In this document: piece by piece, positions 4,258 to 12,475 of the stretch
How positions within the stretch are numbered: position 1 is the stretch's first letter
Layout: each line of letters starts with the position of its first letter
From: Cyanobacteria bacterium RUI128
GTDB taxonomy: Bacteria > Cyanobacteriota > Vampirovibrionia > Gastranaerophilales > Gastranaerophilaceae
Assembly (NCBI GenBank): GCA_024695725.1
Contig: JAILHQ010000072.1
Span: 1-15,308, forward strand
Reading direction: 5' to 3'
DNA: 15,308 nt
Notes under the pieces: generated by a model
What the model was told of the DNA's origin: nothing
Seen by the model: only the letters and a program-made list of their open reading frames with translations
The model's database searches: none
Translations under genes and position numbers: made by a program

Positions 4258-4383
4258 GATTACATTTCCTTCCGTAAAGCACTATTTCAAATTATGATAC
4301 AAATCTTAAATACAATATTGCGATTTGTAAATATTTTTAAAGAATTACCTGAAAATGCCGTTATATCTGCTGGAAGGTGTTCT

Positions 4384-6618
4384 ATGGGCAATAATATCTC
4401 AGTAGTTCAAAGATTCACAAATTACTTTACTACTCACGTGCGTGAATGTAAGGGTAAAACTCTTGCTGAAATTTGCACTATGATGAATTTAACACCTGCC
4501 GAAAAAGAGGAGCTGCTAAAAAATAAATTATTATTACCATTTCAATTTCAATCAGAAGAACACACGTACGGATATGAAAATTTCGGACTACATCTTAACC
4601 CTACAAAAAAACAACCTGCCCAAAAGCCAAAACAACCCCAGAAAAAACCTTCTGACGGGAATATTAACATAAGAGAATTTTTCCCCGGAATAAAACTAAC
4701 AAAAGATGGTAAAGTTGACTTAAATCAATTTACAATGAAGGAACTGCAAAAGAAATATCCTTCAGACAAATATGATGTTAAAAGAGAAGATGGAGACCTT
4801 GTCGTATATAACAAACAAGGGGAAAAGGTATGTGAAGTATTTGTCCAAGACGGGAATATATGTGTAATGATGCCTGTTGATTCTAAAACCAGAAGGGGGT
4901 TAGAAATCAGAGATAACGGAACAATTAAATCAAGAATTGTAAAAACAAAGTCTGATGGTGTTACGACAAGCACAATGTACAGCGGAACTTCCACAAGAAT
5001 CACCGGTTACGGCAGTTTTAATAATCAAACAAAAATGGGCGTAAAAACCTATTATGATGATAACGGAAATGTTATACATAAAGAAAGATATAAAAGAATC
5101 AATGACAAAAATACGACTACAAGTGAAATATTTTATTCCAATAACCAACCATATAAAAAAGTAACAGGTAAGAAAGTTACTTATCCGCTTGTTAATGATT
5201 TAATAGCTGATATTACAGCAAAAACAAAATTAGGATTCCCTACAACCAGAGCATCTCTTTCTAATAATGTACTGAAGCGAATCAATGCTTCTAATGTTGC
5301 CGAGATAGTAGAGCAATATAAAAAGCAGACAGGGAATGAATTGCTTGCAGATATCGCTTCTGAGTGGGGGCTCCCCGGTCCGATTCAGAAAAAATTAATC
5401 GAACATATAGACAACTTATTATCTGAAAACTCCGGACAATATCTTGCCCAAAAACTGTTTGATGATATTAGTGGTCCCGGAAGCGGGAATTTGAGTAAAG
5501 ATGTAATGCAGATAAATAAAAATAATGTTAAAGATGTTTTGGTTGCATATCGTGAATTAAGTATGGATGAGACCAGTGGGACATATGAAACAATCGATAC
5601 TTGCACAGGTTTTATACGAGATTTAACAGGTATAAATATAACCGATAACTTGGCTTATTTAATAGCACCGTACGAAGGTCTTTTAACAGCAATAAACGGA
5701 GAATGGGGTCTTTCTAAAGCCGAACGAACAAGATTAATTAGCCATATAGTTAAGACAGTGACAGATAATGTGTCTGCTGATACAAGCCTGCGTACAAAAC
5801 GTGATATTGCGAATCATTCGGAAGATTTCCACAGTGTTGAGATAGATTTGTATCGTGCAATAAATGCAAATGATGGTACCTTAGAAGATCCAAGAGCGCA
5901 TTTGGAAGAAGCACCTTCTGCTGAATCCGTATCAGCTCCGACCCAACAGGGCGGGACAGGTGACTGTTGGTTATTAGCTGCTCTAAACTCAGCAATAGCA
6001 AAACCTCACGGTTTAAACATGCTCGAACGTCTGGTCAAACATGACGAACAAACCGGGATCTATACCGTTCGTTTGAAAGGCTGGTTTAGAGAATACTATA
6101 TAACTGAACAAGAAGTTGCATCCGTTCATAATTTATCAACAGGAAGTAAAAAAGTTAAAGCCATAGAAATTGCAATGGATAAACTAATCAGAGATTTGAG
6201 TTATTCGGACAGGCGCCATCAAATTACTATGGACTCTGATGGTATGATTGATGATGTTGATATAGATGGAAATCGTGAATGGTTCTTATTCCACAGTTTG
6301 TTTGGGGATAGTAATAAGCTAACCATCGGAAAGACGGATCCGTTAACGGAAGATTTTAATAAGCCAAATAATTTTTATACTTTTGGTTTAAGTGGCGATG
6401 AACCACGTTCAAGTGTTGTGCATAGTGAAAAACACGAAAATTACAAAATAATACCTAATCACGCATATTCTATTATCGGAAGCGACTCTAAAAATGTTTA
6501 TTTGCTAAATCCGTGGGATGCTTCAGATAAACTGACTGTTAGTCGTAAAGATTTCAAAAATATGGGAGTTGAGATAACAAATTATGAGTTGCCATTCGGC
6601 AGTTGGCTATTCACGTAA
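4384..6618 (+). CDS. Large protein with C-terminal calpain-family (C2) cysteine protease domain
   Basis: A 744-residue protein ending in a papain-fold calpain catalytic domain. The sequence around Q-G-G-T-G-D-C-W-L-L-A-A-L carries nucleophile Cys528, N-H-A-Y-S-I-I-G carries His693, and L-L-N-P-W-D carries Asn709, so the triad is intact. Before it lie a short helical N-terminus, a Pro/Lys/Gln-rich linker (about 77-94), a beta-rich region with MORN/RHS-like D-D-N-G-N-V, and two related helical segments each ending in E-W-G-L (327-330 and 440-443). No signal peptide or membrane helix is visible, so its location (cytoplasmic or specially secreted) is open. I chose ATG 4384 because GGAAGG (4372-4377) lies six bases upstream; an in-frame ATG at 4294 has no ribosome site. 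No penta-EF domain is present, so calcium control as in animal calpains is not shown. Confidence 0.88.
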   Translation: MGNNISVVQRFTNYFTTHVRECKGKTLAEICTMMNLTPAEKEELLKNKLLLPFQFQSEEHTYGYENFGLHLNPTKKQPAQKPKQPQKKPSDGNINIREFFPGIKLTKDGKVDLNQFTMKELQKKYPSDKYDVKREDGDLVVYNKQGEKVCEVFVQDGNICVMMPVDSKTRRGLEIRDNGTIKSRIVKTKSDGVTTSTMYSGTSTRITGYGSFNNQTKMGVKTYYDDNGNVIHKERYKRINDKNTTTSEIFYSNNQPYKKVTGKKVTYPLVNDLIADITAKTKLGFPTTRASLSNNVLKRINASNVAEIVEQYKKQTGNELLADIASEWGLPGPIQKKLIEHIDNLLSENSGQYLAQKLFDDISGPGSGNLSKDVMQINKNNVKDVLVAYRELSMDETSGTYETIDTCTGFIRDLTGINITDNLAYLIAPYEGLLTAINGEWGLSKAERTRLISHIVKTVTDNVSADTSLRTKRDIANHSEDFHSVEIDLYRAINANDGTLEDPRAHLEEAPSAESVSAPTQQGGTGDCWLLAALNSAIAKPHGLNMLERLVKHDEQTGIYTVRLKGWFREYYITEQEVASVHNLSTGSKKVKAIEIAMDKLIRDLSYSDRRHQITMDSDGMIDDVDIDGNREWFLFHSLFGDSNKLTIGKTDPLTEDFNKPNNFYTFGLSGDEPRSSVVHSEKHENYKIIPNHAYSIIGSDSKNVYLLNPWDASDKLTVSRKDFKNMGVEITNYELPFGSWLFT

Positions 6619-12041: not shown

Positions 12042-12069
12042 TTGAAAATTTTTATGTGCGTGGTAGAAT
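12042..12069 (+). promoter_or_regulatory. Strong extended -10 promoter of the repeat/tRNA-Val unit
   Basis: TTGAAA (12042-12047) and TAGAAT (12064-12069) with 16-base spacing, plus TGG directly before the -10 box (an extended -10). Each hexamer differs from consensus at one base. Transcription would start near 12076 and run through the truncated repeat, both 96-bp repeats and the tRNA to the terminator at 12382. Confidence 0.65.
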
Positions 12070-12084
12070 AAAACATACCGAGAA

Positions 12085-12110
12085 GATTGGCACTCTGCCG
12101 AATCAAATAC
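12085..12110 (+). repeat. Truncated copy of the 96-bp tRNA-linked repeat
   Basis: GATTGGCACTCTGCCGAA (12085-12102) matches positions 5-22 of the full repeat, and AAATAC (12105-12110) matches its last six bases. The whole hairpin and D-arm-like middle are missing, as after an internal deletion. Confidence 0.75.
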
Positions 12111-12302
12111 GGGCGATTGGCACTCTGCCGAAGAAAACAATTGAATATTGTTTTCTGAGAGGGGTAGCGCATCGGACAACCGAATGGTTGTAGAAAAATT
12201 AAATACGGGCGATTGGCACTCTGCCGAAGAAAACAATTAAGTATTGTTTTCTGAGAGGGGTAGCGCATCGGACAACCGAATGGTTGTAGAAAAATTAAAT
12301 AC
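12111..12302 (+). repeat. Two tandem 96-bp repeats with tRNA-derived 5' sequence
   Basis: Copies at 12111-12206 and 12207-12302 are identical except for two bases, both in one hairpin loop. Each begins GGGCGATTGGC, exactly the first 11 bases of the tRNA-Val that follows in register at 12303, and each also has GTAGCGCATC, the D-arm 3' part of that tRNA. In place of the tRNA's seven D-loop bases lies a 41-base insert with the hairpin GAAAACAAT-(5)-ATTGTTTTC. In place of the anticodon and T arms lies ACAACC-GAAT-GGTTGT, then the A/T-rich joint AAAAATTAAATAC that also precedes the tRNA. No T arm or 3' acceptor strand exists, so these are not tRNA genes. They would be transcribed in the tRNA precursor. 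Confidence 0.9.
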
Positions 12303-12375
12303 GGGCGATTGGCGCAGTTGGTAGCGCATCACATCGACATTGTGGGGGTCACGTGTTCGAGTCACGTATCGCCCA
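12303..12375 (+). tRNA. tRNA-Val (anticodon GAC)
   Basis: A complete 73-base cloverleaf. Acceptor GGGCGAT pairs with ATCGCCC (12368-12374); D stem GCGC/GCGC; anticodon stem TCACA/TGTGG (one G-U); 7-base loop TCGACAT with anticodon GAC at 12336-12338 reading GUC; 5-base variable loop GGGTC; T stem ACGTG/CACGT with loop TTCGAGT; discriminator A at 12375. CCA is not encoded. Position 33 is C (12335) where U is almost universal. It is preceded in register by two repeats sharing its 5' end and followed by an intrinsic terminator. Fold and identity are clear; full decoding activity is the only doubt because of C33. Confidence 0.93.
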
Positions 12376-12381
12376 ATAAGA

Positions 12382-12406
12382 CTCCGAGGCATAGCCTCGG
12401 GGTTTT
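12382..12406 (+). terminator. Intrinsic terminator after tRNA-Val
   Basis: CTCCGAGGC (12382-12390), loop ATA, GCCTCGGGG (12394-12402), then TTTTATTA. Nine pairs including one G-U, beginning six bases after the tRNA. Confidence 0.88.
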
Positions 12407-12475
12407 ATTATGCATATACTAGCGAGAACACGTGAGGCGCAGCTTTGTTTTACAAAGTCTTCTAACGCCCACCAT
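12407..12475. other. Spacer without a recognisable gene
   Basis: It holds a small hairpin CTTTGT-TTT-ACAAAG (12443-12457) and CGCCCACCA (12466-12474), which resembles a tRNA 3' end but has no T arm directly before it. Nothing else is supported. Confidence 0.4.

What the first reader, a model, noticed from the sequence alone, without database searches (positions are those of the whole stretch)
12085..12375. tRNA-linked array: tandem 96-bp repeats that copy the tRNA's own 5' end, in register with the tRNA
Two near-identical 96-bp units, plus a truncated one, precede tRNA-Val. Each begins with the tRNA's exact first 11 bases and holds 10 more bases of its D arm, but a 41-base hairpin insert replaces the D loop and a different hairpin replaces the anticodon and T arms. 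The only two differences between copies fall in a hairpin loop, so the stem is kept. Each unit and the tRNA share the same upstream joint, and one strong promoter and one terminator bracket the whole. Possible roles: processing decoys for RNase P, a structured precursor leader that controls this tRNA, small RNAs released during maturation, or remnants of elements that target the tRNA.
Basis: partly seen in the sequence, partly recalled or inferred. Interest (0 to 1): 0.75.

Follow-up and report, generated by a model that had tools for sequence, protein, structure and literature searches.

The report
Hairpin repeats nested in tRNA-gene copies
The tandem units before this tRNA gene belong to a family of tiny hairpin repeats, common in one group of gut bacteria, that sit inside partial copies of the ends of tRNA and other RNA genes; they look more like small mobile DNA pieces than parts of a switch for this tRNA.

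Summary
In detail: two 96-nt units (12111-12206, 12207-12302; two differences, both in a hairpin loop) and a truncated one precede tRNA-Val(GAC). Each unit is the tRNA's 5' edge, a 41-nt hairpin ("core", ACTCTGCCGA-stem-GAGAGG), D-arm sequence, a second hairpin and the leader. The core is not specific to tRNA-Val: it matches 1239 times in 124 of 146 genomes of the order, with 0 matches for the reversed pattern. It lies beside many tRNA genes, tmRNA and 5S rRNA, in sense on the 5' side or in antisense on the 3' side, and as a rule points into the gene. All 10 upper-stem pairs covary. Of 30 tRNA-Val loci chosen by tRNA identity alone, 12 carry the unit, 3 a second hairpin class in the same place, 2 relics, 13 nothing. 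Antisense placement and empty sites argue against a leader that regulates this tRNA. Best reading: a modular hairpin element that enters arms of stable-RNA genes at the DNA level and comes with a copy of the gene's edge, so the gene stays intact; recombination multiplies it. The enzyme is unknown. The window's units match no Rfam family, and my paper searches listed no description.

The parts
12042..12069 (+). promoter-like site TTGAAA-16-TAGAAT upstream of the array
   Evidence: not above shuffle expectation
12085..12107 (+). truncated unit: tRNA-like GATTGGC plus ACTCTGCCGA, then deleted into a leader copy
12111..12206 (+). unit 1 (96 nt): tRNA edge, core, D-arm piece, second hairpin, leader
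12111..12121 (+). LEFT: copy of tRNA-Val positions 1-11 (unit 1)
12122..12162 (+). core hairpin ACTCTGCCGA-stem-loop UGAAU-GAGAGG (unit 1)
12163..12173 (+). RIGHT: copy of tRNA D-loop/D-stem sequence GGTAGCGCATC (unit 1)
12176..12191 (+). second hairpin ACAACC-GAAU-GGUUGU; the relatives L001-L010 have quite different sequences here that also can form a hairpin (by eye)
12207..12302 (+). unit 2 (96 nt), differs from unit 1 at two core-loop positions
12218..12258 (+). core hairpin of unit 2 (loop UAAGU)
12303..12375 (+). intact tRNA-Val(GAC)
12379..12410 (+). terminator-like hairpin and T-rich tail after the tRNA

Best explanation
The units are copies of a small, modular hairpin element that acts at the DNA level. 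A 39-47-nt hairpin (core) sits in the arm of a stable-RNA gene copy: mostly in or next to the D-arm on the 5' side, T-arm or anticodon arm on the 3' side, or a 5S stem. Each insertion comes with a second copy of the gene's outer edge (leader plus 5' end, or trailer plus 3' end), so an intact gene remains beyond it. This is the layout of islands integrated into tRNA genes, but only about 80-250 bp long and without an integrase. Homologous exchange between the direct repeats then multiplies the units and keeps their edges like the neighbouring gene. SHOWN: core family, covariation, orientation rule, edge duplication, both-sided placement, empty and filled copies of the same tRNA gene in relatives (synteny not tested), a second hairpin class with the same layout, identical second-class hairpins at separate places of one genome. 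INFERRED: that insertion (not loss alone) explains the pattern, that it happens on DNA, and tandem growth by recombination. UNKNOWN: the enzyme, and whether the edge copy arises by site-specific integration or by replicative template switching at the arm hairpin.
For: Exact core in 124 of 146 genomes of the order, 1239 matches, up to 86 per genome; reversed-pattern control 0. In the sample chosen by the core pattern alone (L061-L140), 89 of 122 cores have a tRNA or 5S gene within 700 nt downstream, 14 have none and 19 are cut by contig ends; the 14 nt left of the core recur downstream in 78 of 93 with at least 700 nt of sequence there. Over all samples, within 200 nt a tRNA or tmRNA gene lies downstream of the core in 115 of 209 and upstream in 8 of 209. 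Insertion points in tRNA genes fall mostly at positions 11-13 and 17-20, and at 8-15 from the 3' end; exceptions are 7 and 8, 26-27 (Ile), 36 from the 3' end (Met), and three values where the matched recurrence lay outside the gene. Upper stem: 10 of 10 pairs with double changes, whole structure 96.6% of cells paired, 0 of 500 shuffles reach either value. tRNA-Val loci: 12 of 30 with core, 3 with the second hairpin class or a close variant only, 2 relics, 13 empty; all four states occur among the 8 genomes with an identical tRNA (sorted by eye). tRNA-Arg(CCT): intact core unit in 1 of 10 genomes whose 3' side was readable, a decayed one in another (by eye). Second class AAGGACTCCG-stem-GGAGG in 47 of 146 genomes; of 36 such cores examined 23 have a tRNA within 700 nt downstream, 7 none, 6 are near a contig end; one identical 47-nt copy is listed at 7 places of G004 (their flanks were not compared, so a longer repeat may carry them).
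Against: No mobilising enzyme was found: IS110 transposase matches in 8 of 146 genomes, reverse transcriptase in 59, Y1 transposase in 46, and many of the Y1 genes have their own, different hairpins. Similarity of cores at different genes of one genome is only slightly higher than between genomes (0.672 against 0.624 for the same gene and 0.604 for unrelated pairs; 2 of 190 identical), so the first class is not obviously in rapid spread. The hairpins evolve by compensation over the whole order, which could mean a selected RNA; G.T exceeds A.C among stem mismatches (21 to 13), weakly favouring the core's sense strand. The number of further pair types in the stem did not exceed shuffles (18 against 17.9). 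26 of 209 cores have no RNA gene downstream. The inverted copy of arm sequence after the core is not explained by simple insertion.
Confidence: 0.6

Rival explanations
1. A structured RNA with a job in the precursor: each unit, transcribed with the tRNA, offers the tRNA's 5' strand and hairpins that delay folding or processing (attenuator, RNase P decoy) or recruits a protein to the conserved bulge and loop.
For: In the window and in L003, L007 and L008 a promoter-like site lies just before the first unit (by eye in the three relatives). Stems covary strongly. The central loop is U-R-A-R-U in 85 of 124 distinct cores. Units often contain sequence complementary to the tRNA edge (by eye). A leader motif like rRNA boxA (name recalled) is found before 41 of 68 tRNAs with arrays, 12 of 36 without, 1 of 104 shuffled.
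Against: 3'-side arrays have the core in antisense. Absent at 13 of 30 tRNA-Val genes of relatives with no visible substitute. Relatives differ in which tRNA genes carry it.
Confidence: 0.17
2. Purely mutational product: replication stalls at RNA-gene arm hairpins, switches template to another hairpin repeat and back, leaving edge copies and fold-back inverted pieces; no dedicated element.
For: Unit layout LEFT-core-RIGHT-loop-RIGHTrc is a fold-back of the gene edge in several units (L065, L069, L044; by eye). The tRNA-Val array of G117 joins tRNA to leader at shared CACATTGA. Several unrelated bodies use a similar layout.
Against: Would not conserve ACTCTGCCGA/GAGAGG and the loop across an order, nor place cores outside RNA genes in other repeats.
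Confidence: 0.13
3. Non-autonomous members of the REP/RAYT system moved by Y1 transposases.
For: Y1 (mostly RAYT-like, about 170-200 aa) in 46 of 146 genomes; these hold more cores (mean 13.0 against 6.4, Mann-Whitney p 0.005, relatedness not corrected). 3 of 20 fetched Y1 loci have a core within about 200 nt of the gene.
Against: The hairpins beside many of these Y1 genes are GTAGG-TTGGGCAnnnnTGCCCAA and similar, with the GTAG tag; the core lacks it (by eye). Core-rich genomes such as G039 (41) and G063 (38) have no Y1 match.
Confidence: 0.06

Closest known systems
Islands integrated into tRNA/tmRNA genes (Islander database, PMC4383910; abstract and passages seen)
   Same: Intact gene plus a displaced gene fragment on the matching side and in the same orientation; tandem arrays occur; T-loop and anticodon-loop positions.
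   Different: Units here are about 80-250 bp with no integrase; Islander rejects candidates under 2 kb and those without an integrase. Its table gives 159 islands with a 5' fragment and 3760 with a 3' fragment, whereas here 110 of 144 gene-adjacent cores, and 73 of 89 in the pattern-only sample, are on the 5' side, most in or next to the D-loop.
REP/REPIN palindromic repeats and RAYT (PMC3733652; abstract and passages seen)
   Same: Small hairpins, many copies, compensatory stem variants, tandem reiteration together with flanking DNA.
   Different: No GTAG or CGTC tag; not the hairpins beside the RAYT genes; nested in copies of stable-RNA genes.
Repetitive hairpin-forming elements of sponge mitochondrial DNA (PMC2800124; abstract seen)
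   Same: Hairpin elements that invade repeatedly and are scattered among relatives.
   Different: Intergenic in mitochondria; the abstract mentions no duplicated RNA-gene edge.
Partial tRNA genes left by integrating elements (PMC9897764; passages seen)
   Same: Partial plus complete copy of one tRNA gene.
   Different: There the elements are about 9-23 kb or larger; the passages seen mention no hairpin core.

Membership tests
tRNA-gene integrative islands | intact gene plus displaced fragment on the matching side and strand | tested here: met
tRNA-gene integrative islands | integrase gene within the element | tested here: not met
   repeat units of about 80-250 bp have no room for one
tRNA-gene integrative islands | crossover in anticodon loop, T loop or T-stem region | tested here: inconclusive
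   3' side yes; most units sit in or before the D-loop
REP/REPIN | GTAG or CGTC tag at the foot of the hairpin | tested here: not met
   conserved feet are ACTCTGCCGA/GAGAGG, which were part of the search pattern
REP/REPIN | repeats flank a RAYT gene | tested here: not met
   3 of 20 Y1 loci have a core near; many of the Y1 genes have other hairpins beside them
cis-regulatory leader RNA of tRNA-Val | sense strand, upstream of the regulated gene | tested here: not met
   as a family rule: 34 of 144 gene-adjacent cores are antisense on the 3' side; in the window itself the array is sense and upstream
Rfam RNA families | match at gathering score | tested here: not met
   in the window only the tRNA itself; relaxed search of the array gives only chance-level hits
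IS110 with guide RNA | IS110 transposase in the carrying genomes | tested here: not met
   8 of 146 genomes, 6 over the cut-off
integron attC sites | R-box consensus and integron integrase | not tested
   looked at by eye only; no attC-like box recognised

The most novel reading that the evidence does not exclude
A new class of bacterial mobile hairpins that home to the loops of arms in stable-RNA genes by structure rather than sequence, in either orientation, and that rebuild the target gene by copying its edge, so that essential single-copy genes can serve as safe harbours; several hairpin classes (at least two shown here) share one unknown host or helper machinery that recognises the U-R-A-R-U loop.
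Probability: 0.3. Interest if true: 0.9.

Novelty: new variant of a known kind. Interest (0 to 1): 0.74.

Why it matters
It would add a miniature, integrase-free form of tRNA-gene integration, spread through an order of non-photosynthetic relatives of cyanobacteria, and shows how essential RNA genes could be hit repeatedly yet stay intact. It also warns that tRNA-like repeats before a tRNA gene need not be regulatory. Many arrays coincide with contig ends in these MAGs (39 of 209 cores have a contig end within 700 nt downstream and no RNA gene before it), so they matter for assembly.

Tried and rejected
Own-genome search: no genome is held for the window. Rfam at relaxed threshold: only miRNA-, snoRNA- or leader-like hits below gathering score besides tRNA, 5S and LSU rRNA. 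tRNA-Val-specific regulator: given up as the best reading after one search showed other genes and antisense placement. IS110/bridge RNA and reverse transcription: families too rare or not tied to the core. RAYT/REP: own hairpins differ. The synteny column is void, because tblastx is not among the installed programs. The leader motif TTGAMAAYTRAATA was first taken for part of the element; one search shows it also before tRNAs without arrays. A kink-turn reading of the GCCGA/GA bulge was considered and left untested. Not used: structure prediction, protein search, phage and plasmid collections.

Selection effects: L001-L010 were found with a pattern that includes tRNA-Val sequence, so their Val counts are biased; L021-L060 come from model hits in those ten genomes; L061-L140 were picked from the listed part, which names only the first places of some genomes; the 209 cores come from 35 sources. 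One core-like hit at window 281 lacks the hairpin and was dropped before counts. L011-L020 repeat L001-L010 and were left out. In the 5S counts two cores (L076, one in L112) met only the unit's own 5S copy. The 20 Y1 loci are a choice from the longer list. The shuffle control is a plain letter shuffle. Sorting of the 30 tRNA-Val loci and of the tRNA-Arg loci was by eye. Relatedness was not corrected in any count.

Full report
OBSERVATION. Two 96-nt units and a truncated one stand directly before tRNA-Val(GAC). Each full unit reads: tRNA positions 1-11; a 41-nt hairpin ACTCTGCCGA-[10-bp stem, 5-nt loop]-GAGAGG; GGTAGCGCATC from the D-arm; a second hairpin; the leader. The two units differ at two loop positions. 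The stretch 12076-12410 and unit 1 alone fold far better than shuffles. In the window Rfam finds only the tRNA; a relaxed search of the array gives only hits far below gathering scores.

SAME ELEMENT ELSEWHERE. An exact gapped pattern found ten contigs, several titled Gastranaerophilales or Melainabacteria; eight of them show one or more units directly before an annotated tRNA-Val(GAC), and two end within the array. The copied edge follows each species' own tRNA: GGGCGAT where the tRNA has GGGCGAT, GGGCGGT where it has that; the first units of L001 and L009 depart at one base each. A covariance model of these units then hit 3 to 30 places per genome in the same ten genomes. Fetched contexts showed the core beside tRNA-Leu, -Lys, -Pro, -Met, -Ile, -Thr, -Glu, -Phe, -Arg, -His, beside tmRNA (L046) and in copies of 5S rRNA ends (L060, L071, L076, L112; an intact 5S gene confirmed by Rfam in L060), and, by eye, in a copy of a tRNA-Asn anticodon arm (L054).

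RULES OF PLACEMENT. (1) The core points into the gene: a tRNA or tmRNA lies within 200 nt downstream of 115 of 209 cores and upstream of 8. (2) On the 5' side the core is sense to the tRNA (110 cores), on the 3' side antisense (34, two of which met only their own 5S copy); 39 cores run into a contig end and 26 have no RNA gene within 700 nt downstream. (3) The sequence left of the core is usually a copy of the gene's outer edge and recurs downstream: 78 of 93 in the sample chosen only by the core, 120 of 153 over all samples (where the 153 include the dropped chance hit). (4) The copy mostly stops in the D-arm (positions 11-13 or 17-20) or the T-arm, sometimes earlier (7, 8) or in an anticodon arm. 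(5) After the core many units continue with the arm's other side and then its inverse, as in L065: GTAGCACC-GTA-GGTGCGCTAC beside the gene's GTAGCGCACC, so that the unit looks like a folded-back copy of the gene edge with the core inside.

ABUNDANCE AND RANGE. The bare core pattern matches in 124 of 146 genomes of the order, 1239 matches in all, with no match for the reversed pattern. In 292 genomes of the phylum 125 match; no match is in a genome larger than 2.5 Mb; there the reversed pattern matched once in each of 7 genomes, all without a core. The stem shows compensatory change at 10 of 10 upper pairs over 36 distinct 41-nt cores, against a mean of 5.0 in shuffles with 0 of 500 reaching it; the number of further pair types does not exceed shuffles. 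The four foot pairs could not vary in that test because they were part of the search. Over 124 distinct variable parts, 1205 of 1369 pairs are Watson-Crick; 77 mismatches are G.A or A.G and 39 are G.G; 85 have the central loop T[AG]A[AG]T.

PRESENCE AND ABSENCE. Thirty tRNA-Val loci were drawn by tRNA identity alone from the order. Twelve have a core unit upstream, three only the second hairpin class or a close variant, two look like relics, thirteen have nothing (sorted by eye). Among the eight with a tRNA identical to the window's, all four states occur. At tRNA-Arg(CCT) one of ten readable relatives has an intact core on the 3' side and one a decayed copy; some others carry different structured repeats set in a similar edge copy (by eye). 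Synteny was not tested, so these are the same gene rather than proven orthologous sites. The unit comes and goes at a given gene.

SECOND CLASS. AAGGACTCCG-stem-GGAGG occurs in 47 of 146 genomes; its reversed control matched in 7 genomes, at most twice each. Of 36 such cores in 30 loci, 23 have a tRNA within 700 nt downstream, 7 none, 6 are near a contig end; 24 of 36 have a recurring left edge; 24 of 28 distinct ones contain the loop motif T[AG]A[AG]T. In G004 one 47-nt sequence of this class is listed at seven places. Thus the layout does not depend on one hairpin.

MECHANISM. The layout equals that of islands in tRNA genes, where the element restores the gene it splits and leaves a displaced fragment (PMC4383910, passages seen), but the pieces are far too short for an integrase and most sit at the 5' side. 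I therefore hold a DNA-level hairpin element with edge duplication as most likely (0.6). The step that makes the edge copy is open: site-specific integration in trans, or replicative template switching at the arm hairpin. An RNA role remains possible for 5'-side arrays (0.17). Candidate enzyme families tested (IS110, Y1, reverse transcriptase) give no clean link.

LITERATURE. Searches for Gastranaerophilales/Melainabacteria with tRNA-Val, Melainabacteria with structured RNA, tRNA with tandem repeats and hairpins, mobile hairpins, REP/RAYT with tRNA, integration sublocation, and tRNA gene fragments listed no paper that, by title and abstract, describes this element; beyond the listings I saw passages of three papers and the abstract of a fourth.

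Noticed in passing
L052, L056, L057, L058 (G004, G002): A dispersed structured repeat of about 200 nt (GTCTGAGTGnGACCTCGCTTG...CGGGGTCAGTTGACTATATGAAA) that holds a core; no plausible Rfam match at E 0.5.
   Followed up: partly
L008, L100, L281, L288: Another dispersed repeat ending ...GCGAACGAGCAAGACA (with variants) at tRNA 3' ends with a copy of the tRNA end on its far side (by eye).
   Followed up: partly
L261-L280: RAYT-like Y1 proteins of about 160-220 aa, many of them beside GTAG-tagged REP-like hairpins such as GTAGGTTGGGCATACTTGCCCAAC.
   Followed up: partly
12303-12375: The tRNA-Val anticodon loop reads UCGACAU, with C before the anticodon where U33 is nearly universal (recalled); relatives L004, L007, L010 have U.
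   Followed up: no
L049 (G001): Near-identical core-bearing repeats about 600 bp apart flank a gene that looks like ribosomal protein L14 (my reading of the sequence).
   Followed up: no
L064 (G117): Core units stand before a tRNA-fMet-like gene that seems to break off at the anticodon loop (by eye).
   Followed up: no
4294-6618: 774-aa ORF with a match to calpain-type peptidase PF00648 in its C-terminal part.
   Followed up: no
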